Positions 1,148-63,030 of a stretch of DNA of 64,000 nt are shown piece after piece; position 1 is the stretch's first letter, and the number at the start of each line of letters is the position of its first letter. The translations under genes were made by a program, and so were the position numbers. This DNA is from Neoarius graeffei (Eukaryota > Chordata > Actinopteri > Siluriformes > Ariidae): NCBI RefSeq assembly GCF_027579695.1, contig NC_083571.1, forward strand, positions 92,501,186 through 92,565,185. Reading direction: 5' to 3'. The notes under the pieces are model-generated. The model was given only the letters and a program-made list of their open reading frames with translations, did no database searches and was not told where the DNA came from.

Positions 1148-3516
1148 TTATATTACTTTGTATTTGTTCAAGTTTAATGATAATTTGTTACTGTTGAACC
1201 ATGTTATTAATTTACTTATTTCTGTTGTGATCTCCTGCAATAGTTCCATTAAATTATCACCAGAAAAGAGGATATTTGTATCGTCCACAAACAAGACAAG
1301 CTTCATTACTTTAGATACACTACATATGTCGTTGATATATAGTATAAAAAACTTTGGTCCTAACACTGACCCCTGGGGAACACCACAAGTTATGTCCAAA
1401 CATGAGGAAGAACAATCTCCCAGCTTCACAAACTGTCTCCTGTTACTTAAGTAGCTTTTAACCCAGTTTAAAACTATACCCCTGATGCCATATTGTTCCA
1501 GTTTTTTTTATCAATGTCATGATTTATTGTATCAAATGCTTTTTTAAATCAATGAATATTCCAACTGCATGTTTTTTTCTGCTCTATGGAATTGGTGATT
1601 TCTTCAACTAATTCTATTAAAGCCAGTGATGTTGATCTATAAGCTCTAAATCCATATTGACTGTCACTAAGTAGTTTGTTTGTCAATAAATTTATCCAAT
1701 CGGTTATTGAAAAGTTTTTCGAGAATTTTGGAGAATTGCGAAAGTAGTGAGACAAGTCTGTAGTTTGTGAAGTGGTGTTTGCTCCCAGTTTTGTACAGAG
1801 GAATGACTTTTGCTGTTTTCATTCTGTTTGGAAATGTATCAGTTAGAAATGACAAATTGCATTATGTGAATGGCTTGGATATTCCATCAATAACATTTTT
1901 CAATATCATCATGTCAATGTCATCACAGTCGGTAGATTTTTTGTTCATACATTTCCCAACAATATCAACAATTTCTTTTTCTTCCACTGCTATAAGGAAC
2001 ATTGAAAAAGAATTATTATCTATCAAATTGCCCAGATTTTCAACAGATGTTCCTGGATCCGGGATTTGTTCTGCTAAGATTGGTCCTACGTTTACAAAGT
2101 AATGGTTGAAACTATTAACTACCACATCCATATTATATTCATCTTTGTCATTATTAAGAAAGTACCTTGGATAATTTATATATCTTGACCCATTTTTTAT
2201 AATACTGTTCAAAGTGCTCCAAATTACTTTGATATTATTTCTGTTATCGTTTAATAATTTCTTATAATATTCTTTCTTAGCAGCCCTTATAATATTAGTT
2301 AATTTATTTTTATATTTTTTATATCTATCCTCTGCCTCTTTAGTTTTCTGCTTTATGAACTCTCTATACAATGTATTTTTCTTTTTACAGGCATTTTGTA
2401 AACCCCTTGTAATCCATGGACATACTGTTTGACTTTTTTACTATATTGAACAATTGGGCAATTTTTATTATATAATGATATAAATATCCTCAAGAATTCC
2501 TCATATGCTTTATTTATGTATTTTAGTCAGTATATTTCATCCCAGTTTTGTGCCAGCAAGTCATTTCTAAAAGTATTAATTGATTCCTCTGATCTAAGTC
2601 GTCTGAAAAGTTTTCTGTTTTCTGGTTTATTATTCCCAAATTTTGTTTCATAAACTGAGAAAACTGGTAAATGATCACTGATATCATTTATCAATAGTCC
2701 ACTTACTAAATTGTCATTAAAACTGTTAGTGAATATATTGTCTATGAGGGTGGCTCCGTGTGAGGTGATTCTGTTGGGTCTAGTAGTTTTAGGGGAAAAG
2801 GCCATACTGTACATTGTGTTGATAAAATTGTCTGTCATTTTGTGTTTATTTGGATTGAGCAGGTCAATATTGAAGTCTCCGCATATGAAGACTGTTTTGT
2901 GACTCACTTTTGAAAACATTTCCTCTATCCAGTTATTGAAGACCTCAATACTAGAATCTGGAGCTCTATATATACAACTAGCAATTACATTTTTTTGTTT
3001 CTCTCTTCAAATTTCAACTGTTATGCATTCCAGTGTGTTGTCAATTACTGCTGATATACTTTCCATCACATTGAATTTCAAGTCCCTATCCACCAATATG
3101 GCCACTCCCCCTCCACTCTTGTTTTGTCTATTTATGTAGTTGAATTCATAGCCCTCCAGCTCAAAGTCTGTGCCTTTGACATTATGTATCCAAGTTTCAG
3201 ATATTGCTACGATGCTGAAAGGATGCGAAAACTGATGTAGATATTCCTTGATGAGATTGAAATTTGCATACATGCTTCTGCTATTGAAGTGGATAATTGA
3301 GAGTTTGCCATCTGCTTTAATGCTCCGATTGAACTGTTCATCAGTGTAATAATAGCAGTTGTTGTTAATAGCAGAGAAGAAATTATTGTCTGGGTCTATA
3401 TCATATTCCAAATCCTGTGATTTGTGATCAGTGTACTCAAACGATTTTAGTTCCAGTAAATCCTGTTCTGTAATCCTCTGAGATGTGCAGCTTATGGTCC
3501 CACTCATGATGGTCAC
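1148..3516 (-). pseudogene. LINE ORF2: endonuclease plus reverse transcriptase, frameshifted
   Basis: The endonuclease part (3516-2527) shows HFNSRSM, AISETWI, GGGVAILV, CGDFNIDLL and SDHLPVF, the expected order of an APE endonuclease with the catalytic GDFN and SDH motifs. A linker (2371-1862) is followed by RT blocks: PLYKTGSKHHFTNYR, SQYGFR, GVPQGSVLGP and FVDDTN, where the usual FADD is FVDD. At least four frame breaks (near 3007, 2527, 1862 and 1550) show it is not functional. Confidence 0.8.
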
Positions 3517-3887: not shown

Positions 3888-3892
3888 AGATA

Positions 3893-5500
3893 CAGTGGTG
3901 CTTGAAAGTTTGTGAACCCTTTAGAATTTTCTATATTTCTGCATAAATATGACCTAAAACATCATCAGATTTTCACACAAGTCCTAAAATTAGATAAAGA
4001 GAACCCAGTTAAACAAATGAGACAAAAATATTATACTTGGTCATTTATTTATTGAGGAAAATGATCCAATATTAAATATCTGTGAGTGGCAAAAGTATGT
4101 GAACCTCTAGGGTTAGCAGTTAATTTGAAGGTGAAATTAGAGTCAGGTGTTTTCAATCAATGGGATGACAATCAGGTGTGAGTGGGCACCCTGTTTTATT
4201 TAAAGAACAGGGATCTATCAAAGTCTGATCTTCACAACACGTTTGTGGAAGTGTATCATGGCACGAACAAAGGAGATTTCTGAGGACCTCAGAAAAAGTG
4301 TTGTTGATGCTCATCAGGCTGGAAAAGGTTACAAAACCATCTCTAAAGAGTTTGGACTCCACCAATCCACAGTCAGACAGATTGTGTACAAATGGAGGAA
4401 ATTCAAGACCATTGTTACCCTCCCCAGGAGTGGTCGACCAACAAAGATCATTCCAAGAGCAAGGCGTGTAATAGTCGGCGAGGTCACAAAGGACCCCAGG
4501 GTAACTTCTAAGCAACTGAAGGCCTCTCTCACATTGGCTAATGTTAATGTTCATGAGTCCACCATCAGGAGAACACTGAACAACAATGGTGTGCATGGCA
4601 GGGTTGCAAGGAGAAAGCCACTGCTCTCCAAAAAGAACATTGCTGCTCGTCTGCAGTTTGCTAAAGATCACGTGGACAAGCCAGAAGGCTATTGGAAAAA
4701 TGCTTTGTGGACAGATGAGACCAAAATAGAACTTTTTGGTTTCAATGAGAAGCGTTATGTTTGGAGAAAGGAAAACACTGCATTCCAGCATAAGAACCTT
4801 ATCCCATCTGTGAAACATGGTGGTGGTAGTGTCATGGTTTGGGCCTGTTTTGCTGCATCTGGGCCAGGACGGCTTGCCATCATTGATGGAACAGTGAATT
4901 CTGAATTATACCAGCGAATTCTAAAGGAAAATGTCAGGACATCTGTCCATGAACTGAATCTCAAGAGAAGGTGGGTCATGCAGCAAGACAATGACCCTAA
5001 GCACACAAGCCATCCTACCAAAGAATGGTTAAAGAAGAATGAAGTTAATGTTATGGAATGGCCAAGTCAAAGTCCTGACCTTAATCCAATTGAAATGTTG
5101 TGGAAGGACCTGAAGCGAGCAGTTCATGTGAGGAAACCCACCAACATCCCAGAGTTGAAGCTGTTCTGTACGGCGGAATGGGCTAAAATCCCTCCAAGCC
5201 GGTGTGCAGGACTGATCAACAGTTACCGGAAACGTTTAGTTGCAGTTATTGCTGCACAAGGGGGTCACACCAGATACTGAAAGCAAAGGTTCACATACTT
5301 TTGCCACTCACAGGTATGTAATATTGGATCATTTTCCCCAATAAATAAATGACCAAGTATAATATTTTTGTCTCATTTGTTTAACTGGGTTCTCTTTATC
5401 TACTTTTAGGATGTGTGTGAAAATCTGATGTTGTTTTAGGTCATATTTATGCAGAAATATAGAAATTTCTAAAGGGTTCACAAACTTTCAAGCACCACTG
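3893..5500 (+). mobile_element. Complete Tc1/mariner element with long inverted repeats
   Basis: The element starts CAGTGGTGCTTGAAAG and ends with its reverse complement CTTTCAAGCACCACTG, flanked by TA on each side (3891-3892 and 5501-5502). The terminal inverted repeats are about 215 bp (3893-4108 and 5288-5500), as in Tc1 elements with outer and inner transposase sites. The transposase frame between them is uninterrupted. Repeat arms differ at only a few positions, and a second, broken copy of the same family lies at 51249-54456. Confidence 0.95.
4258..5280 (+). CDS. Tc1 family transposase, intact
   Basis: A cut-and-paste transposase of the IS630/Tc1/mariner family. The start MARTKEISED is chosen at 4258 (340 aa, the usual Tc1 length); an in-frame ATG five codons upstream is possible. 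The N-terminal third has two helix-turn-helix units (around LHQSTVRQIV and ESTIRRTL) with a GRPTK hook between them. The catalytic DD34E triad is visible as WTDETK, QQDNDPKH and SPDLNPIE. No stop or frameshift is seen, so the protein could still be active; that is inference. Confidence 0.95.
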   Translation: MARTKEISEDLRKSVVDAHQAGKGYKTISKEFGLHQSTVRQIVYKWRKFKTIVTLPRSGRPTKIIPRARRVIVGEVTKDPRVTSKQLKASLTLANVNVHESTIRRTLNNNGVHGRVARRKPLLSKKNIAARLQFAKDHVDKPEGYWKNALWTDETKIELFGFNEKRYVWRKENTAFQHKNLIPSVKHGGGSVMVWACFAASGPGRLAIIDGTVNSELYQRILKENVRTSVHELNLKRRWVMQQDNDPKHTSHPTKEWLKKNEVNVMEWPSQSPDLNPIEMLWKDLKRAVHVRKPTNIPELKLFCTAEWAKIPPSRCAGLINSYRKRLVAVIAAQGGHTRY

Positions 5501-5502
5501 TA

Positions 5503-9840: not shown

Positions 9841-10012
9841 GTCGGCACGGTGGTGTAGTGGTTAGCACAGTTGCCTCACAGCAAGAAGGTTCTGGGTTCG
9901 CGACCGGCAGGGGCCTTTCTGTGCGGAGTTTGCATGTTCTCCCCATGTTTGCGTGGGTTTCCTCCAGGTGCTCCGGTTTCCCCCACAGTTCAAAGACATG
10001 TGGTTAGGTTAA
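9841..10012 (+). repeat. tRNA-derived SINE, 3'-truncated
   Basis: The tRNA-like head is clear: box A TGGTGTAGTGG and box B-like GGTTCGCGACC. The body stops after the AAGACATG segment, so only about 170 bp of the roughly 360-bp element is present. Confidence 0.85.
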
Positions 10013-10200: not shown

Positions 10201-10554
10201 GTGCCGGTGGTGTAGTGGTTAGTGCTGTTGCCTCACAGCAAGAAGGTCCGGGTTCGAGCCCCGTGGCCAGCGAGGGCCTTTCTGTGAGGAGTTTGCATGT
10301 TGTCTGCGTGGGTTTCCTCCGGGTGCTCCGGTTTCCCCCACAGTCCAAAGACATGCAGGTTAGGTTAACTGGTGACTCTAAATTGACCGTAGGTGTGAAT
10401 GGTTGTCTGTGTCTATGTGTCAGCCCTGTGATGACCTGGTGACTTGTCCAGGGTGTACCCCGCCTTTCGCCTGTAGTCAGCTGGGATAGGCTCCAGCTTG
10501 CCTGCGGCCCTGTAGAACAGGATAAAGCGGCTAGAGATAATGAGATGAGATGAG
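10201..10554 (+). repeat. tRNA-derived SINE, full length
   Basis: Box A (TGGTGTAGTGG) and box B (GGTTCGAGCCC) of an RNA polymerase III promoter are followed by the full family body and the GATGAGATGAG tail. CTCCGT flanks it on both sides as a short target duplication. This is the reference structure for the family in this window. Confidence 0.9.
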
Positions 10555-10613
10555 CCTCCGTCTTCTTGATCAGAAATCTTTGGTTACTCCCACCTATCTT
10601 TTGAAAAGGTCAC

Positions 10614-10927
10614 TGTGGCAGCGGGGGCATGGTCAAGCACCGGTCTGTGACAGGAGGGCGGAGTCAGGGAAGGTAAGTGGCAGAATCACTTCACCTGAGA
10701 GCAATTAACCTGTGTTTGTGTGTCTTCCCACTGACCGCGCCCTATATGAGGAGGGAGAGCGAGAGCGGAAGTGGCTCATCCCTGAACCAGACGCCGGTTG
10801 TGTGTGTGTGTGTCTGTGCGAGAGCAATTATTGTTGTACTGAAAAGTGTGGCAATAAAGCCAAGTATTAAACCTGATCTCTGTCCTGCCGTCCTCTGTGC
10901 TCCACCCACACATAGGGAACTCCTACA
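10614..10927 (+). repeat. 5' LTR
   Basis: 314 bp, starting TGTGGCAGCG and ending CTCCTACA. It carries CCTATATGAGG (about 10740), a likely core promoter, a TG microsatellite (10798-10815) and AATAAA at about 10852, a likely polyadenylation signal. It matches the 3' LTR along its whole length. Confidence 0.95.
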
Positions 10928-10973
10928 GTGGTGCCGAAACCCGGGAAACGTGGAGCACCAACCCAGTAGCCCC

Positions 10974-11697
10974 ATGGAATCCTCCCCGTTCGCCGACCTG
11001 GTCCACGCCCTCGCCACGGCTCAGCAAAGCCAGCACCAGGCGCTCGTCACACTCCGAAAGGAACAAGAGCGGCACTTCGAAGCCCTGGTGCTGGCCCAGC
11101 AGGAAGATCGCAAGGCGTTCCGGCATCTCCTCGCGTCGGCGGGGCCCACCAGTGCTCCGGCCGCGGGCCCATCTCCCCTCACTGTCACCAAGATGGGCCC
11201 GCAGGACGACCCCGAGGCGTTCCTCACGTTGTTCGAGCAGGTCGCCGAAGCCTCGGGGTGGCCGATGGAGCAGCGCGCGGCACGCCTCCTCCCCCTCCTG
11301 ACGGGAGAGGCGCAGTTAGCCGCACTACAGCTCCCCGCCGACCGCCGGCTGGCCTACGCCGACCTTCGCCGGGCTGTCCTCCAGCGCGTGGGGCGCACGC
11401 CGGAGCAGCAGCGCCAGCGCTTCCGCGCGCTGCGGATGGAGGAAGTCGGCAGCCCGTTCGCATTCGGCCAGCAGCTCCAGGACGCCTGCTGGCGGTGGCT
11501 GAGGGCCGAAGATCGCGACACCGAGGGAATCATCGACCAGGTGGCGCTGGAACAGTTCATCGCCCGCCTACCCGCCGGAACCGCGGAGTGGGTCCAGTGC
11601 CACCGCCCGGAGTCGCTGGATCAGGCCGTAGGACTGGTGGAGGATCATCTGGCGGCTGTCCCGGTGGCAGGACAGCAGATGACATCATCTCTTCTCT

Positions 11698-11738
<41 letters not shown>

Positions 11739-14700
11739 CCTCCTCCTGTGTCCCGTCCTCGCCCCATTCCCCCACCGCAGAGGCGGGGGCCGGCACCACC
11801 CCAGCCGGCCCGCCGCACCCATGGTGCCCTCCCGTTTCTCCCTTCTGTGTCTGTCTCTCCCCCACCTCAGGTGAGTGAGCCCCAGGTCACCGGTGCAAAG
11901 GGAAAGCCCGGGCCGGTTTGCTGGCGCTGCGGGGAACCGGGCCACCCTCAACAGCAGTGCACAGCAATGGAAGTGGGCACGGTGGTTCGGATCCCCGACG
12001 CGCCAGAGGCCGCCCTCGATCGGGCCGGAGCGTATCGCATACCGGTGAGTATCCAAGGGGCTACATATCAGGCGTTGGTGGATTCTGGTTGTAATCAGAC
12101 CTCAATTCGCCAAAGCCTGGTTCAAAACGAGGCATTGGGGGGAGCACAAGGGGTGAAGGTGTTGTGTGTGCATGGGGATGTTCACTGCTACCCTTTGGTG
12201 TCGGTCCACATTATTTTCAGAGGGGAAAAATTTATAGTGAAGGCGGCGGTTAATCCTCGCCTTACCCACTCTTTAATTTTGGGGACTGATTGGCCGGGAT
12301 TTCGGGGTTTAATGACGCGCCTAGTAGAGAGTGGGTCCTGCCAGTTGACAGGGGGAGGTCCCGGTGTCGCTTTGGCGGGAGCAGCTGTCACAGAGCCGTC
12401 TACGTCATCTCCGCGTCAGAGTGAGGAGCCGCCGGCTCCTTCTCTCTCTATTGGGGAATCCCTCGCGGATTTCCCATTAGAGCAGTCGCGAGACGAGACT
12501 CTGCGGCATGTGTTTGACCAAGTGAGAGTAATCGATGGTCAAACGCTCCCGCCGAACGCCACCCCGTCCTTCCCCTACTTCGCGATTATGAAGGATAGAT
12601 TATACCGAGTGACGCAGGACACTCAAACTAAAGAGCGAGTCACGAAGCTTTTGATTCCAAAGAGCCGCCGGGAATTGGTATTCCAGGCGGCTCACTTTAA
12701 TCCCATGGCTGGACACTTAGGGCAGGATAAAACACTAGCCCGAATAATGGCCCGATTCTATTGGCCGGGGATTCGCGGCGATGTCCGTAGGTGGTGTACG
12801 GCATGCCGCGAATGCCAGTTAGTAAATCCAGCGGCCATTCCAAAAGCGCCTTTGTGCCCTCTACCGTTAATCGAGACCCCGTTTGAGAGAATTGGGATGG
12901 ATCTCGTCGGGCCATTAGATCAGTCAGCACGAGGGTACCGCTTTATATTAGTTCTGGTGGACTATGCAACGCGATACCCGGAAGCAGTGGCTCTGCGCAA
13001 TATCTCAGCACGCAGTATTTCAGAGGCACTCTTCCGCGTCATCTCCCGAGTTGGAATCCCGAAAGAGATTCTGACTGACCAAGGCACTACGTTTATGTCA
13101 CGAACACTGTGCGAACTGTATGGGTTATTGGGGATTAAGCCGATCCGCACCAGCGTATATCACCCACAAACGGACGGTTTAGTGGAATGGTTCAACCGCA
13201 CCCTCAAAAATATTATTAAGAAATTCGTAAGTGAGGATGCACGTAATTGGGATAAGTGGCTCGAACCCTTGCTGTTCTTAGTGCGAGAGGTCCCCCAAGC
13301 CTCCACGGGGTTCTCCCCGTTCGAATTATTATATGGGCGTAAGCCGCGCAGCATCCTGGACGTGCTGCGGGAAAATTGGGAGGAGGGACCTTCACAAAGT
13401 AAGAACGAAATTCAGTACGTTATGGACCTGCGCGCAAAACTCCACACGCTCACCCACCTAACTCAGGAGAATTTGCGGCAGGCCCAGGAACGGCAAGCCC
13501 GCCTGTACAACAAGGGTACGCGCCTTAGAGAGTTCACACCGGGAGATAAAGTACTCGTACTGTTGCCCACGTCGAGCTCCAAATTGATCGCCAAGTGGCA
13601 AGGGCCCTTTGAGGTCACACGGCGAGTCGGGGACATCGACTATGAGGTGAGGCGAACAGACAGGGGTGGGGCGCTACAGATCTACCACCTCAATCTGCTG
13701 AAACTCTGGAACGAGGAGGTCCCTGTGGCGTTGGTGTCGGTAGTTCCGGAGAAGGCGGAGCTGGGGCTGGAGGTTCAAAAAGGGACATTGGCATCACGTA
13801 CTTCTCTGATCCCCTGTGGAGACCACCTCTCCCCGACCCAACTCACGGAGGTCGCCCAGTTGCAGGCCGAGTTTTCGGATGTGTTCTCGCCCCTGCCCGG
13901 TCGCACTAACCTCATAGAACACCACATAGAGACGCCCCTGGGGGTGGTAGTGCGTAGCCGCCCTTACAGGCTACCCGAACACAAAAAAAAGGTGGTTCGG
14001 GAAGAACTTCAGGCCATGCTCGAAATGGGCATCGTCGAGGAGTCCCACAGTGACTGGAGCAGCCCGGTGGTCTTGGTTCCCAAGGCCGACGGCTCAGTCC
14101 AGTTCTGTGTGGACTATAGAAAAGTCAACACTGTGTCTAAATTCGACGCGTACCCAATGCCTCGTATTGATGAGCTGCTCGATCGACTAGGCACGGCTCG
14201 CTTTTACTCGACACTGGATTTGACGAAGGGATATTGGCAGATCCCCTTGACTCCATTATCCCGGGAGAAAACGGCCTTTTCCACACCGTTCGGCTTACAC
14301 CAGTTCGTCACACTTCCGTTTGGGCTGTTTGGGGCGCCCGCTATGTTTCAGCGGCTGATGGACAGGGTCCTCCGGCCCCATGCCACCTATGCGGCCGCGT
14401 ATTTAGACGATATTATCATTTATAGTAATGACTGGCAGCGGCACCTGCAACACCTGAGGGCCGTCCTTAGGTCGCTGAGGCGGGCGGGACTCACGGCCAA
14501 CCCAAAGAAGTGTGCGATTGGGCGGGTGGAAGTACGGTATCTGGGCTTCCACTTGGGCAACGGGCAGGTGCGTCCCCAAATTAATAAGACAGCAGCGATT
14601 GCGGCCTGCCCGAGGCCCAAGACCAAAAAGGGGGTGAGACAGTTCCTGGGGCTGGCTGGCTACTATCGTAGGTTTATACCTAATTATTCGGACGTCACCA

Positions 14701-15239
14701 GCCCGCTGACTGACCTCACTAAAAAGGGGGCACCAAGTCCGGTCCAGTGGACGGAGCAGTGTCAGCGGGCTTTCTCTGAGGTAAAGGCTGCACTGTGTGG
14801 GGGGCCACTTTTGCACTCCCCTGACTTCTCTCTCCCTTTTATGTTACAGACGGATGCGTCGGACAGAGGGCTGGGGGCCGTTTTGTCCCAGCAGGTGGAG
14901 GGGGAGGACCGCCCGGTCCTTTACATCAGTCGGAAGCTGTCAGTGCGGGAGGGGCGCTACAGCACGATTGAGAAGGAGTGCCTGGTGATCAAGTGGGCGG
15001 TCCTCGCCCTCCGTTACTACCTGCTGGGGCGCCCTTTCACCCTCTGTTCGGACCACGCGCCCCTCCAGTGGCTCCACCGCATGAAGGATGCCAACGCGCG
15101 GATCACCCGTTGGTATCTGGCACTCCAACCCTTCAACTTCAAGGTGGTCCACAGGCCGGGGGTGCAGATGGTCGTGGCGGACTTCCTCTCCCGTCAAGGG
15201 GGGGGAGTCGGCTGCAGGCCGGACGGGCGCCCGGCCTGA
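10974..15239 (+). CDS. Gag-pol polyprotein with integrase before reverse transcriptase
   Basis: The frame is open from within the LTR, but the first sensible start after the primer-binding site is MESSPFADLV at 10974, giving 1421 aa. In order: gag (to about residue 310), a CCHC knuckle (CWRCGEPGHPQQQC, about 316), an aspartic protease (ALVDSGCNQTS, about 367), an integrase zinc domain (about 565-615) and DDE core (GMDLVGP, LTDQGTTF, HPQTDGLVEWFNR; about 640-740) with a GPF module, then reverse transcriptase (YLDD at about 1143) and RNase H (LQTDASDRGLGAVLSQ). No stop is needed between gag and pol, so one polyprotein is expected. It could still be active (inference). Confidence 0.95.
11700..11737 (+). 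repeat. CT microsatellite inside gag
   Basis: A pure CT run encodes a serine-leucine stretch in the gag frame. A length change not divisible by three here would break the polyprotein, yet the frame is kept. Confidence 0.9.
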
Positions 15240-15256
15240 GTTGGGCGGTGGGGGTA

Positions 15257-15566
15257 TGTGGCAGCGGGGTCGTGGTCAAGCACCGGTCTGTGACAGGAGG
15301 GTGGAGTCAGGGAAGGTAAGTGGCAGAATCACTTCACCTGAGAGCAATTAACCTGTGTTTGTGTGTCTTCCCAGTGACCGCGCCCTATATGAGGAGGGAG
15401 AGCGAGAGCGGAAGTGGCTCATCCCTGAACCAGACGCCGGTTGTGTGTGTGTCTGTGCGAGAGCAATTATTGTTGTACTGAAAAGTGTGGCAATAAAGCC
15501 AAGTATTAAACCTGATCTCCGTCCTGCTGTCCTCTGTGCTCCACCCACACATAGGGAACTCCTACA
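15257..15566 (+). repeat. 3' LTR
   Basis: 310 bp, TGTGGCAGCG to CTCCTACA, nearly identical to the 5' LTR; the main difference is a TG run shorter by 4 bp. The target duplication GTCAC follows directly. Confidence 0.95.
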
Positions 15567-16125
15567 GTCACATACCGAGTACACACGTATGCTGAACTGA
15601 TTGGTTTTCAAGGGGGTTCATTTGAAAGCTGTAGGCGAGATGACAGGAGAGAAAAGAAAGCTGGACATTCGCAGCTATTTTTCAAAACAAACAACCAATC
15701 AGAATTCAAATACATTCTGTTGCCAAGTAAAATTGTAACCTTTCAACATGTCAAAAAAGTTCTAGAGCCCTCGTCCTGTTTTACCGTTAGATCAATCACA
15801 TATCAGCTTAAATTAGCATTCTAAAACTAGTTAAAGATCACACAGAAGAGAGCCCACTCCCCCTGCCAGCCTAATGGAACGCAGTGTTTAAGGCTCTGTA
15901 TGTGTTTTACTTCCATTTATGAGGGGAAAAGAACATACACCCTCCCGACAGTAAATGCGTTATTTGCTTATAAGACACATTTGCAAACTGGTAGAATGAG
16001 TTAATCATCACATGCAAGATTTGCAGTTAATCAAATGGATTGCATATTATTATTATTCATATTATTCATGAATTACTACAGTTCTGAACTTCAAATTTTA
16101 AAAGTCTGGACTTTGGAGAGATGAT
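15567..16125. other. Intergenic stretch, possible hAT N-terminal fragment
   Basis: No gene is supported. At 15638 a short frame begins MTGEKRKLDIRSYFSKQ, in the style of N-termini of hAT transposases, but it stops after about 30 codons and no further transposase sequence follows. Confidence 0.4.
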
Positions 16126-16531
16126 GAACTTTATTAATCACACGCTTGTGAAAGTCCTCTCTGCATTTGACCCATCTGAAGCAGTGAACATGCACACACA
16201 CATACCCAGAGCAGTGGGCAGTCATGCTAACAGCACCCAGGGAGCATTTGGAAGCAAGGGCGTAGGTTGGTATTAACTTTTGGTGGAACACAACGGAGCA
16301 AAATATTGTGACCTTCTAATGTTGACCTGAAGTTGGCGCCACTGGGGGTTGGCATTGGATTTATGTCCCCACCAATGTTAATACCAAACCTACGCCCTTG
16401 TTCCCAAATGCTCCCCGGGTGCTGTTAGCATGACTGCCCACTGCTCTGGGTATGTGTGTGTGCGCATGTTCACTGCTTCAGATGAATCAAATGCAGAGAG
16501 GATTTTCACAAGCGTGTGATTAATAAAGTTC
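16126..16531. repeat. Long inverted repeat (foldback), arms about 155 bp
   Basis: The arms 16126-16277 and 16377-16531 are reverse complements with few mismatches; both begin GAACTTTATTAATCACACGC. The loop is about 100 bp. Part of the arm (CCATCTGAAGCAGTGAACA...) also occurs in the repeat at 25658-25960, so this is a dispersed family arranged head to head. Confidence 0.85.
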
Positions 16532-16642
16532 TTCTATTTTTGTACGTTCTGGGACATAGTGTACAGCTTGGACTTCAACAACTCATACACATACCCCTTA
16601 AATTTGTCCACTTTTCAAATGTGTGTATTTCATCCATCCATC

Positions 16643-46271: not shown

Positions 46272-47680
46272 CTGTGAATAATGAAAAGCAGCACAGAATA
46301 ATCAGTTATGATCCAACAGTCGAAATAAGCATAAGCTGTTTTAAAGCCTCTACCTGAGAGTTAAAATTTAAACTCTCTGCAAAATTATTCAGCACATAAC
46401 AGTAGAATATTAATCCCATTTATACTCACTCATAAAGGGTCCAGTTTTGTTCTGTACGATGGTCCAGCCTTCTTTGACCTCAATAATAATCGGCATTATT
46501 CTTAGGTTGTGTTTATAGTGGAAATGATCAGGAATGTCTTCTCGCTTGTACACCATCATGTTAGGATTTGCATTCGCCAACAAATTATACACTTCATCAA
46601 ATTTATCTGAGAAAAAAAAAATCAATCACTACAGCGGCAAATGATGTTATGTAATATCAGAAGCGAAATTGTTTTTCCCCATAATTATAAAACTGCCAGA
46701 TAAGTGCATAACTTTGTTTAAAGTAAAGAATTCAGTTCTGTTTGAAAACGCTCAGACTTGTTTGTGCCAGCAACCCAAAATTGTACGTTTTGGATACAAG
46801 CTTAGGTATAAAATCTGTGAATGTCTCATTCTTCTAAAAATGTACCTTCTTTAGGTAGAATGCCCACCACTGGGCTCTTGTCTATCCATGTGTAGAGATC
46901 TCGACTCACATAAGTGTCCAGCTCAATGATTTTGTCACGTGACAGCTGTGTCATACCATGGTCACTTGTGACAATGAGATTGATTTTGTCATAAAGCCCA
47001 GCTCTCTTGAGCTCGTCTCGGAGAAAGCCCAGTTTGACATCAATGTCCTCAATGATCACGTCGATAAGCGGGCTCTCGGGCCCCAGGTTGTGGCCGCTCT
47101 CGTCAGGCTCTTCCCAATACAGCACCCCAAAATTAATCGCCTCTGGTCCTGAGAACCAGCTGATCAGCTTCTCTACACGCATCTCAAAAGGCATGGAGGC
47201 ATTGTATGGCATGTAACGGGTCGGGTATATTCCACCAATGGACACATCTGATCCAGGCCACATGGCAGCCCCGCTCCTCCATCCAGCCATCTGATTGGTT
47301 ACCCACAGTGGAACAGCCTCCGTCCACCATCGAGAGTCGTACACTTCCGGCCCCTCCATGGAGAAGGAGCGATTCATAACTGGGTCGTACATTTCATTTG
47401 CTACAATGCCATGACTCTCTGCGTGCAAGCCTGTCACTAAAGTGTAGTGGTTAGGAAAGGTCTTGGTGATGTAGGTGTTCTCCATACGCTCAACCTGCAC
47501 TCCCTCGTCTATCAGGGCACGGAAGTTGGGTGTGGGAACCCTGTTCACGTAGTCCCAGCGGAAACCATCAAACGACACGAGCAGCAGCTTGGGATGCTCC
47601 TCTTGGTGTGAGAGAGGGGGGAGCAGCAAGGCTAGAAGGCAGCTCAGCAAATACATCTTCCTCATTAACACAAAGTTCAT
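45871..47680 (-). CDS. enpp5: Ectonucleotide pyrophosphatase/phosphodiesterase family member 5
   Basis: A type I membrane protein of the alkaline phosphatase superfamily that acts outside the cell; ENPP5's physiological substrate is poorly defined. Exons on the minus strand: 47680-46846, 46606-46430, 46271-45871 (1413 nt, 470 aa; human ENPP5 is 477). All junctions are GT-AG, phase 1. A signal peptide (MRKMYLLSCLLALLLPP) follows a few possible start residues; I use MNFVLMRKM at 47680. Metal and nucleophile motifs are complete: VSFDGFRWDY, TKTFPNHYTLVTG, EEPDESGHNLGP, TSDHGM and GNHGYDN. A transmembrane helix (VVGTVLGSGLVLGFLITFV) and tail EISQPLL are ENPP5-like; ENPP4 is the nearest alternative but fits less well. 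It converges on eif5. Confidence 0.93.
46430..46606 (-). CDS. enpp5: enpp5 coding exon 2
   Basis: 177 nt, encoding KFDEVYNLLANANP, YKREDIPDHFHYKHN and GWTIVQNKTGPFM; acceptor TTTTCTCAG, donor GTGAGT. Confidence 0.92.
46846..47680 (-). CDS. enpp5: enpp5 coding exon 1 (signal peptide and most of catalytic domain)
   Basis: Encodes residues 1-278, through KSPVVGILPKE. An acceptor (CTTTCTGTAG) precedes it at about 47706, so 25 nt of 5' UTR belong to the same exon and an upstream noncoding exon must exist. Donor G|GTACAT at 46845. Confidence 0.92.
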
Positions 47681-47786
47681 GTTGCACTTTGATACCAGAT
47701 ACAACCTACAGAAAGAAAATAATTCATGAGGCATACCTAATGACTTTTCTCTAACCAAGAAGTTTTACATTTTCAAAATGACAGCA

Positions 47787-51008: not shown

Positions 51009-51389
51009 CACTATGAATATATTGTTTTTAATGCAAAGAAGCCACAATTTCTTTTTGAACTTGAAAATGAGTCAAGCTTCTTACCTTATCTATGATGATG
51101 ATGGTAATAATAACAAGTGTTGCCAGGCAAAACAAACCTCACCCGGTAGCACTCACGATGAATATGGTACTCTATGGGTACATGTGGCTGCTGCTTATAA
51201 ATAAAATTATTTTCTGATGCCATGTCCATACAGTAAATATAGCATATACAGTGGTGCTTGAAAGTTTGTGAACCCTTTAGAATTTTCTATATTTCTGCAT
51301 AAATATGACCTAAAACATCATCAGGTTTTCACACAAGTCCTAAAAGTGGATAAAGAGAACCCAGTTAAACAAATGAGACAAAACTATTA

Positions 51390-52995
51390 CAACCCCGATT
51401 CCAAAAAAGCTGGGACAAAGTACAAATTGTAAATAAAAACAGAATGCAATGATGTGGAAGTTTCAGAATTCCATATTTTATTCAGAATAGAACATAGATG
51501 ACATATCAAATGTTTAAACTGAGAAAATGTATCATTTAAAGAGAAAAATTAGGTGATTTTACATTTCATGACAACAACACATCTCAAAAAAGTTGGGACA
51601 AGGCCATGTTTACCACTGTGAGACATCCCCTTTTCTCTTTACAACAGTCTGTAAACGTCTGGGGACTGAGGAGACAGTATGCTCAAGTTTAGGGATAGGA
51701 ATGTTAACCCATTCTTGTCTAATGTAGGATTCTAGTTGCTCGACTGTCTTTGGTCTTTTTTGTCGTATCTTCCGTTTTATGATGCGCCAAATGTTTTCTA
51801 TGGGTGAAAGATCTGGACTGCAGGCTGGCCAGTTCAGTACCCGGACCCTTCTTCTACGCAGCCATGATGCTGTAATTGATGCAGTATGTGGTTTGGCATT
51901 GTCATGTTGGAAAATGCAAGGTCTTCCCTGAAAGAGACATCGTCTGGATGGGAGCATATGTTGCTCTAGAACCTGGATATACCTTTCAGCATTGATGGTG
52001 TCTTTCCAGATGTGTAAGCTGCCCATGCCACACACACTAATGCAACCCCATACCATCAGAGATGCAGGCTTCTGAACTGAGTGCTGATAACAACTTGGGT
52101 CGTCCTTCTCCTCTTTAGTCCGAATGACACGGCGTCCCTGATTTCCATAAAGAACTTCAAATTTTGATTCGTCTGACCACAGAACAGTTTTCCACTTTGC
52201 CACAGTCCATTTTAAATGAGCCTTGGCCCAGAGAAGATGTCTGCACTTCTGGATCATGTTTAGATACGGCTTCTTCTTTGAACTATAGAGTTTTAGCTGG
52301 CAACAGCGGATGGCACGGTGAATTGTGTTCACAGATAATGTTCTCTGGAAATATTCCTGAGCCCATTTTGTGATTTCCAATACAGAAGCATGCCTGTATG
52401 TGATGCAGTGCCGTCTAAGGGCCCAAAGATCACGGGCACCCAGTATGGTTTTCCGGCCTTGACCATTACGCACAGAGATTCTTCCAGATTCTCTGAATCT
52501 TTTGATGATATTATGCACTGTAGATGATGATATGTTCAAACTCTTTGCAATTTTACACTGTCGAACTCCTTTCTGATATTGCTCCACTATTTGTCGGCGC
52601 AGAATTAGGGGGATTGGTGATCCTCTTCCCATCTTTACTTCTGAGAGCCGCTGCCACTCCAAGATGCTCTTTTTATACCCAGTCATGTTAATGACCTATT
52701 GCTAATTGAGCTAATGAGTTGCAATTTGGTCCTCCAGCTGTTCCTTTTTTGTACCTTTAACTTTTCCAGCCTCTTATTGCCCCTGTCCCAATTTTTTTTG
52801 AGATGTGTTGCTGTCATGAAATTTCAAATGAGCCAATATTTGGCATGAAATTTCAAAATGTCTCACTTTCGACATTTGATATGTTGTCTATGTTCTATTG
52901 TGAATACAATATCAGTTTTTGAGATTTGTAAATTATTGTATTCCGTTTTTATTTACAATTTGTACTTTGTCCCAACTTTTTTGGAATTGGGGTTG
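51390..52995 (-). mobile_element. Intact second-family Tc1 inserted in the Tc1 above
   Basis: Ends CAACCCCGATTCCAAAAAAG and CTTTTTTGGAATTGGGGTTG, wait-free inverted repeats of about 210 bp, with TA at 51388-51389 and 52996-52997. Deleting it restores the host repeat AGACAAAA...TATACTTGGTC. Length 1606 bp. Confidence 0.93.
51610..52632 (-). CDS. Tc1 family transposase (second family), intact
   Basis: 340 aa from [10 protein letters not shown] at 52632; 18 further in-frame codons upstream begin with another ATG. The N-terminus has paired-like HTHs ([27 protein letters not shown]) and a GRKTI hook. The DD34E catalytic residues are in [18 protein letters not shown] and [11 protein letters not shown]. 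It ends KRKGDVSQW. No break is seen. It shares only family-level similarity with the transposase at 4258-5280, so this is a distinct Tc1 lineage. Confidence 0.95.
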
Positions 52996-53049
52996 TATAC
53001 TTGGTCATTTATTTATTGAGGAAAATGATCCAGTATTACATATCTGTGA

Positions 53050-61502: not shown

Positions 61503-61829
61503 AAAGATTATCTCATCTCATTCATCTCTAGCCACTTTATCCTGTTCTACAGGGTCGCAGGCAAGCTGGAGCCTATCCCAGCTGACTACGGGCGAAAGGC
61601 GGGGTACACCCTGGACAAATCGCCAGGTCATCACAGGGCTGACACATAGACACAGACAACCATTCACACTCACATTCACACCTACAGTCAATTTAGAGTC
61701 TCCAGTTAACCTAACCTGCATGTCTTTGGACTGTGGGGGAAACCGGAGCACCCGGAGGAAACCCATGCGGACACGGGGAGAACATGCAAACTCCACACAG
61801 AAAGGCCCTCAAAGCTTTATACCCACAAA
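61503..61829 (-). repeat. Truncated SINE, tandem copy 1
   Basis: Reverse SINE lacking its tRNA head, ending at AAAGGCCCTC and joined to AAAGCTTTATACCCACAAAG. The same junction follows copy 2. Confidence 0.88.
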
Positions 61830-62153
61830 GATTATCTCATCTCATCTCATTATCTCTAGCCGCTTTATCCTTCTACAGGGTCGCAGGCAAGCTGGAGCCT
61901 ATCCCAGCTGACTACGGGCGAAAGGCGGGGTACACCCTGGACAAGTCGCCAGGTCATCACAGGGCTGACACATAGACACAGACAACCATTCACACTCACA
62001 CCTACAGTCAATTTAGAGTCACCAGTTAACCTAACCTGCATGTCTTTGGACTGTGGGGGAAACCGGAGCACCCAGAGGAAACCCATGCGGACACGGGGAG
62101 AACATGCAAACTCCGCACAGAAAGGCCCTCAAAGCTTTATACCCACAAAGATT
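61830..62153 (-). repeat. Truncated SINE, tandem copy 2
   Basis: Same truncation and same junction as copy 1, about 325 bp on. Small internal differences (a missing ACTCACATTC unit) show some time since duplication. Confidence 0.88.
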
Positions 62154-63030
62154 ATCATTATCGTTATTTCTCTAACATACAGATTGAAAAAAGAAATAAT
62201 GATAATCTTTGTAAAATGTTGTAAAAACTTGACATGATTGGGAGAGTTCACAGAATATGGAAGTGGGTTTTGGAGCACAATTTAATTGTATTTTTGTAGA
62301 AAGAATGCAAGAAAGAAATAAGAGGGAAGGATAGATAGATAGACATGCCTGCATTATAAATACACACCATGGTTCTGTTGCACTACTGGGTATTGGAGAC
62401 TAGAATAGTTGCACCTGTGTGTGTAGGTCCCCTACAGAGGGAGCACTTGGGTGTAGGTCACTGTGCTCACTGTCTCCACTGAACCGTGTCATGGGGGAAA
62501 TGTGAAGTTAAACCACAGCCTGGCTGCTGTGCAAACTATGAGGATGTGATCAGATACTTTGCTGTCTCCGTGGTAACCAGAAACTGACGCAACACCTCCC
62601 CCTTCTCATTCAAAAACCACAGTGGAAAGTCGGAGCAGCGCGAGTGATCGAGTGCGCAACTCTTTCCTTTCCTTCGTCTCCAGAGCCATATAAGCGGTAA
62701 GTCTCTTTTAACAGCATTAGAGGCAACGATGACACTCATTTCAACAATTTAGGGGCAGCAGGGGGGCACAGGAAACTGAGCTGTGTCTTTTTTTTGGTCG
62801 TTAAAATAAAAATTACAAATATTTTTACGAAGCCTTTCCAGTTTAGATCAATTCCAACGCGTTCATAATGCTGCGCGCGCTCTGACGTTTCCAGATGTTT
62901 TAGATGTTCGCTGTGAAGTTTGCGACATGTGCGGGATTTAAAGATGAAGTTATGATACAGACCTGATGCATGTTAAGTATACTCCAGGCAGTTTGCTCTG
63001 AGGATTTTTTGTTTGTTTGTTTGTTTGTTT
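62154..63030. other. Mostly unique sequence; possible first exon near 62690
   Basis: No coding gene is supported. A GC-richer stretch (about 62580-62692) ends in a consensus donor GCG|GTAAGT, so a promoter and noncoding exon of a gene lying further right is possible. A (GTTT)n run lies at 63010-63030. Confidence 0.3.

What the first reader, a model, noticed from the sequence alone, without database searches (positions are those of the whole stretch)
10614..15566. Intact gypsy element with integrase upstream of reverse transcriptase (Gmr1 type)
The single 1421-aa frame puts the integrase (HPQTDGLVEWFNR) before the RT (YLDD) and RNase H, the reverse of the normal Ty3/gypsy order. Such elements are known as the Gmr1 group in deuterostomes but are uncommon. 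This copy has LTRs about 98% identical, a 5-bp target duplication, a primer site and no stop, so it may be recently active. Gag and pol being one frame is also notable.
Basis: partly seen in the sequence, partly recalled or inferred. Interest (0 to 1): 0.75.

Follow-up and report, generated by a model that had tools for sequence, protein, structure and literature searches.

The report
Young Gmr1-type gypsy retrotransposon copy
This is an apparently complete copy of a known kind of jumping gene whose DNA-inserting enzyme is encoded before its copying enzyme; it is a clean example of a described group whose family has spread fairly recently in this genome, so it is interesting but not new.

Summary
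Window 10614-15566 (+) is a complete LTR retrotransposon: LTRs of 314 and 310 bp (6 differences in 310 aligned sites), target duplication GTCAC, an 18-nt primer site matching a tRNA-Phe of the same genome exactly, and one 1421-codon frame. Order: SCAN-type capsid, CCHC knuckle, protease, integrase, reverse transcriptase, RNase H. Against Ty3 Gag-Pol (7q5b_A) integrase and RT are swapped. It is not an assembly accident: 10 of 10 fetched two-LTR copies have their own target duplications and integrase after protease (9 of 10 keep the RT), and 30 of 30 fetched RT loci (window included) carry integrase upstream. Four more distant SCAN elements (three distinct RTs, 52-56% identical) share the order. 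In an RT tree of 40 rows the 14 integrase-upstream rows are split from 26 ordinary gypsy rows of the same genome at 100/100. So it is a Gmr1-type element, a documented group; named Gmr1 references were not available for the tree. A single gag-pol frame is normal for fish Gmr, and the group is not confined to deuterostomes. Recent family amplification is well supported; activity today is untested.

The parts
10609..10613 (.). target-site duplication GTCAC, left
10614..10927 (+). 5' LTR, 314 bp, TG...CA; TATA-like TATAT at 10743; AATAAA at 10853
10929..10946 (+). primer-binding site, exact 18-nt complement of tRNA-Phe(GAA) 3' end with CCA
10974..15239 (+). single gag-pol frame, 1421 aa plus TGA
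11400..11651 (+). SCAN domain in Gag (capsid C-terminal part), PF02023 E=1e-21
11919..11960 (+). CCHC zinc knuckle CX2CX4HX4C (nucleocapsid)
   Evidence: Pfam score is under its curated cut-off
12039..12300 (+). aspartic protease, active site DSG at 12081-12089, ILG motif downstream
   Evidence: Pfam matches are under cut-off, assignment rests on motif and position; right edge approximate
12654..12830 (+). integrase HHCC zinc-binding domain (PF17921 E=3.6e-21)
12879..13229 (+). integrase core (PF00665), D643-D702-E738 of the frame (D-58-D-35-E), HPQTDG at 13161
   Evidence: right edge approximate
13602..13703 (+). integrase C-terminal domain (PF22938 Integrase_p58_C E=8.9e-9)
13914..14600 (+). 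reverse transcriptase, YLDD at 14400-14411 (Pfam RVT_1 spans about 14076-14555; the Ty3 match starts at 13914)
14748..15134 (+). RNase H (PF17917 E=1.1e-35, PF17919 E=2e-33)
15243..15256 (+). G-rich polypurine-like tract just before the 3' LTR
   Evidence: role inferred from place and composition; interrupted by pyrimidines
15257..15566 (+). 3' LTR, 310 bp
15567..15571 (.). target-site duplication GTCAC, right

Best explanation
It is an autonomous, env-less LTR retrotransposon of the Gmr1-type branch of Ty3/gypsy, one copy of a large young family. Shown by sequence: complete ends, target duplication, primer site, full domain set in one frame, and integrase ahead of RT. Inferred mechanism: the 5' LTR drives one RNA; it is translated as one Gag-Pol polyprotein; the element's aspartic protease cuts it; Gag with a SCAN-type capsid domain and a CCHC knuckle packages the RNA; tRNA-Phe primes first-strand synthesis at the PBS and the G-rich tract primes the second; the integrase, released from the middle of the polyprotein and not from its end, inserts the DNA with a 5-bp stagger. 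Because the protease frees each enzyme, the swapped order should change the order of release and not the chemistry.
For: Pfam order SCAN, CCHC, protease, INT (HHCC, core, C-terminus), RT, RNase H. Ty3 Gag-Pol 7q5b_A: the window's RT/RH aligns to 584-1009 and its INT to 1088-1426, so RT comes first in Ty3 and INT first here. Ten of ten fetched two-LTR copies have matching 5-bp TSDs and INT after NC/PR; 9 of 10 go on to RT (L012 lacks it, L013 has a shortened INT). INT upstream of RT in 30 of 30 fetched RT loci, window included, and in 4 of 4 distant SCAN elements. RT tree: 14 INT-upstream rows against 26 ordinary rows, support 100/100. tRNA-Phe match.
Against: No reference Gmr1 sequence (cod, Ciona) was available, so grouping with the named elements was not tested; the tree has no outside root and comes from one genome. 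Protease and knuckle Pfam scores are under cut-off. The second-strand primer tract is not a clean polypurine run. No RNA or protein data.
Confidence: 0.95

Rival explanations
1. An ordinary gypsy element in which a rearrangement or assembly error moved the integrase of this one copy.
For: Only the unusual order in a single copy, as first reported.
Against: The order recurs in the fetched two-LTR copies with different target duplications (9 of 10 complete for INT then RT), in 30 of 30 fetched RT loci and in 4 of 4 elements at 52-56% RT identity; RT is separate from 26 ordinary elements.
Confidence: 0.01
2. A Ty1/copia element, whose normal order is integrase before RT.
For: Order INT-RT-RH is the copia order (PMC8220671 passage).
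Against: Best solved-structure matches are Ty3 for RT/RH (4ol8_A, E=2.6e-88) and for INT (7q5b_A, 3.8e-33); the RT match in Pfam is RVT_1; Gag has a SCAN domain.
Confidence: 0.01
3. A separate, undescribed INT-upstream lineage that reached the copia-like order independently of Gmr1.
For: No named Gmr1 sequence was in the tree; RT of the other INT-upstream families fetched from the same genome is only 52-56% identical.
Against: SCAN-type Gag is independently tied to Gmr1-like elements (PMC4131045, PMC3424704, PMC4592553 passages), and here SCAN and INT-upstream go together in divergent families.
Confidence: 0.03

Closest known systems
Gmr1-type Ty3/gypsy elements (Gmr1 of cod, Ciona and other elements; Goodwin and Poulter 2002 and Butler 2001 known here only as citations)
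   Same: Integrase upstream of RT; SCAN-like capsid; gypsy-type RT
   Different: Direct sequence identity to the named elements was not measured. This element is 4.95 kb with 310-314 bp LTRs and 1421 aa
Gmr1-Gmr4 of Tetraodontiformes (PMC11117352, passages and part of Table 2 seen)
   Same: Fused gag-pol in a single ORF, no env, young insertion ages
   Different: Those have consensus lengths of 6058-6465 bp, LTRs of 337-518 bp and 1506-1634 aa; this one is more compact
Ty3 (7q5b_A, 4ol8_A)
   Same: Homologous RT/RNase H and integrase
   Different: RT before integrase in Ty3; Ty3 was not among the 5 solved matches of the window's Gag piece
SCAN zinc-finger proteins (ZNF24, 3lhr_A)
   Same: Homologous SCAN domain, E=5.6e-13
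   Different: Host transcription factors; their SCAN domain derives from Gmr1-like Gag according to PMC3424704 (passage)

Membership tests
Gmr1-type Ty3/gypsy | Integrase domain upstream of RT, RNase H after RT | tested here: met
Gmr1-type Ty3/gypsy | RT/RNase H and integrase of Ty3/gypsy kind | tested here: met
   Ty3 is the best solved match for both
Gmr1-type Ty3/gypsy | RT separate from ordinary gypsy lineages and grouped with other INT-upstream elements | tested here: met
   elements of one genome only, unrooted; the ordinary rows form two main groups
Gmr1-type Ty3/gypsy | RT grouping with the named Gmr1 elements themselves | not testable with these tools
   no reference sequences held; viral-contig scans found none
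Gmr1-type Ty3/gypsy | SCAN-like capsid in Gag (reported in over 50% of frog Gmr elements) | tested here: met
   PF02023 1e-21; PDB SCAN 5.6e-13
Gmr1-type Ty3/gypsy | gag and pol fused in one frame (as in fish Gmr) | tested here: met
   literature
LTR retrotransposon | paired LTRs with TG..CA, TSD, PBS | tested here: met
Currently active element | transcription and new insertions | not testable with these tools
   no RNA, no population data
Ty1/copia | copia-type RT and integrase | tested here: not met
   RVT_1 and Ty3 are the matches; no copia RT model among the Pfam rows at E up to 1. No copia reference was in a tree

The most novel reading that the evidence does not exclude
A Gmr1 family in a very recent, possibly continuing expansion to high copy number, in which selection keeps the single gag-pol polyprotein intact while the capsid segment (SCAN end to CA-NC linker) diverges faster than pol, as if gag alone were escaping something in the host or being exchanged between subfamilies.
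Probability: 0.25. Interest if true: 0.5.

Novelty: new member of a known kind. Interest (0 to 1): 0.25.

Why it matters
Gmr1-type elements show that gypsy pol works with the integrase ahead of RT, and their Gag is the reported source of the SCAN domain of amniote zinc-finger factors. A genome with many copies of such a family in long open frames offers material for asking how a middle-placed integrase is processed and how the SCAN capsid assembles. The finding itself is a clean example of a documented group.

Tried and rejected
Scans of viral contigs for RT and INT relatives: no relative confirmed. A first orientation-blind order count (13 of 30) was wrong for minus-strand loci and was replaced (30 of 30). 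Gag structure prediction from a single sequence gave mean pLDDT 55.7 and pTM 0.24: too weak, so no fold search was made and it is not used. NCBIfam hits (IS481, IS3, IS30, group II) are far under their cut-offs. Literature on tRNA-Phe priming: 0 papers in one five-term search, so no claim about its novelty. Selection was not computed from the top-150 RT hits because these are ranked by protein score; the pN/pS values come from the ten LTR-selected copies and the window only. No other piece of the family was found in the window by domain and LTR searches. Genome contigs was not scanned.

Full report
What is there. The stretch 10614-15566 (+) has the parts of a complete LTR retrotransposon. The two LTRs (314 and 310 bp) differ at 6 of 310 aligned sites, K2P 0.0196, plus one 4-base indel in a TG repeat. 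With assumed neutral rates of 1e-8 to 1.5e-9 per site per year (recalled values, no host calibration) this is about 1 to 6.5 million years. The 5-bp target duplication is GTCAC. The LTR holds a TATA-like TATAT and AATAAA. There is no room for an env gene after pol: the frame stops at 15239 and the 3' LTR begins at 15257.

Primer. The PBS at 10929-10946 occurs once in the window; none of 100 shuffles has it. A tRNA-Phe 3'-end pattern has 16 listed exact matches in the host genome; the one fetched is a tRNA-Phe(GAA) by ARAGORN, and its 3' end plus CCA is the exact complement of the 18-nt PBS. In the ten other fetched copies the PBS has 0 to 2 mismatches, 2 of 10 exact; 10 of the 11 changes are C-to-T or G-to-A at CpG sites, as methylation decay would give (inference).

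Protein. Pfam on four consecutive pieces gives SCAN (1e-21), CCHC (under cut-off), aspartic protease (under cut-off; DSG at 12081), integrase zinc-binding (3.6e-21), integrase core (4.1e-10), integrase C-terminal domain (8.9e-9), RVT_1 (6.8e-4 and 2.2e-21 for the two parts split between pieces) and RNase H (1.1e-35), in that order. The integrase triad is D-58-D-35-E (counted). Against one chain of Ty3 Gag-Pol (7q5b_A) the window's RT/RH matches 584-1009 and its integrase 1088-1426: the two blocks are exchanged in the window. The Gag SCAN segment matches solved SCAN domains, 5 sequences at E up to 0.01, best ZNF24 3lhr_A, E=5.6e-13.

Not a single-copy accident. The window lies in a 2.34-Gb assembly of 38 contigs. 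The LTR has 42 reported matches there (a lower bound; 40 of 3218 first-look candidates were scored). Besides the window, 12 places in that list have two same-strand LTRs near each other; the ten with LTR starts 3.6 to 4.6 kb apart were fetched, the two with 10 and 15 kb were not. All ten have identical 5-bp flanks of their own, LTR K2P from 0.0032 to 0.0369, and the order SCAN, NC/PR, INT; nine go on to RT, all ten to RNase H; L012 has lost the RT and L013 part of INT. They come from the best LTR matches, so older copies are under-represented. The RT query returned 150 matches, the scoring cap out of 46122 candidates: these best ones are 97-100% identical, none with a stop in the match, and 97 of the 150 lie in open frames of at least 1400 codons, window included. 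Of the 30 loci fetched from these (window included), 30 have integrase upstream (L036 only 89 residues of it) and 30 have RNase H downstream of RT; one (L046) also has an integrase match further downstream, not followed. The 29 other RT genes differ from one another by 3.0% of nucleotides on average, with 4 of 406 pairs identical.

Selection. In the ten LTR-selected copies plus the window (11 in all), pooled pN/pS is 0.55 for INT (11 rows), 0.45 for RT (7 rows; L009, L013, L018 dropped for gaps, L012 has none), 0.57 for RNase H (9 rows; L012, L015 dropped) and 0.38 for SCAN (10 rows; one copy gave no row). Codons with stops were skipped and some rows are partial. Values under 1 fit amplification from coding-competent sources; pairs share branches, so no significance is claimed.

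Phylogeny. Thirty loci with the ordinary gypsy gag (PF03732) were taken from 150 matches, a capped list. In 27 of 30 an RT match follows gag within the fetched 1.5 kb; in none of the 30 does an integrase match (window integrase as query, E up to 1e-3) lie between gag and RT; one (L060) has an integrase match upstream of gag. Their own integrase lay beyond the fetched ends and was not seen, so INT-downstream is not shown for them. Four distant SCAN-bearing elements, picked for long open frames from 150 SCAN matches (capped), were fetched in part; all four have INT upstream of RT, with RT 52-56% identical to the window; two of the four (L079, L080) have the same RT. Of 45 RT candidates 40 were long enough (L012, L057, L062, L067, L075 dropped). 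In the IQ-TREE tree the 14 SCAN/INT-upstream rows and the 26 ordinary rows are separated by a branch with 100/100 support, present in 100% of 200 bootstrap trees. The tree is unrooted, from one genome, built on RT rows cut by similarity to the window, and lacks the named Gmr1 references.

Comparison. Papers read in passages: Gmr1 elements have INT upstream of RT (PMC8220671; PMC3587641); SCAN occurs in over half of frog Gmr elements and in no other element type there (PMC4131045); the SCAN family derives from Gmr1-like Gag (PMC3424704; PMC4592553); all Gmr elements of the tetraodontiform study have gag and pol in a single ORF, and Gmr insertions there are young (PMC11117352). Goodwin and Poulter 2002, Butler 2001 and Emerson and Thomas 2011 are known here only through citations; they are not held. 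So the element is a new member of a known kind.

What is left open. Activity today, genome-wide copy number (the pattern count did not complete) and the host's name (a ray-finned fish is my guess from recalled repeats; not tested). Many stop-free, closely similar copies make recent amplification likely; they do not show current transposition.

Noticed in passing
window 4204-5277 (+), inverted repeats 3891-4106 and 5287-5502: Tc1-like transposase frame of 358 aa without stop (HTH_SB, HTH_Tnp_Tc3_2, DDE_3), flanked by 216-bp inverted repeats 96% identical; a fairly young DNA transposon.
   Followed up: partly
window 51610-52692 (-), inverted repeats about 51388-51606 and 52778-52997: Second Tc1/mariner-like transposase frame, 360 aa without stop, inverted repeats about 80% identical.
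   Followed up: partly
window 2527-3003 (-): Endonuclease domain of a non-LTR retrotransposon (PF14529, 1.4e-8) in an open frame.
   Followed up: no
window 9848-10000 and 10205-10355: Two copies, about 355 bp apart, of a repeat beginning CGGTGGTGTAGTGGTTAG, tRNA-SINE-like by recall, just left of the element.
   Followed up: no
window 16123-16534: Long imperfect inverted repeats (80-95 nt arms, 88-94% complementary) just right of the element, perhaps a small foldback element.
   Followed up: no
window 46826-47764 (-): 312-codon open frame matching type I phosphodiesterase/nucleotide pyrophosphatase (PF01663, 4.1e-78), probably an exon of a host ENPP-like gene (gene name recalled).
   Followed up: no
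window 61510-62156: Tandem repeat of 320 bp, 2.0 copies, 95% matches.
   Followed up: no
window 11364-11863 against L009-L018: The SCAN end and the capsid-nucleocapsid linker differ more between copies (85-97% nucleotide identity) than pol (mostly 95-99%); rapid gag change or template switching between subfamilies.
   Followed up: partly
G000 C7:54316306-54316923 and C15:20297008-20297596: Pairs of LTRs of this family in inverted orientation only 21 and 15 bp apart, an odd palindromic arrangement.
   Followed up: no
G000 C8:46881657, C7:35877184, C2:19906591, C14:15060657: Further SCAN-bearing, INT-upstream elements in the same genome, RT 52-56% identical to the window's, so several Gmr-type lineages coexist.
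   Followed up: partly
L010, both flanks: Weak integrase-like matches (66% over 41 and 29 residues) at both ends of the fetched stretch, as if this copy had inserted into the integrase of an older relative.
   Followed up: no
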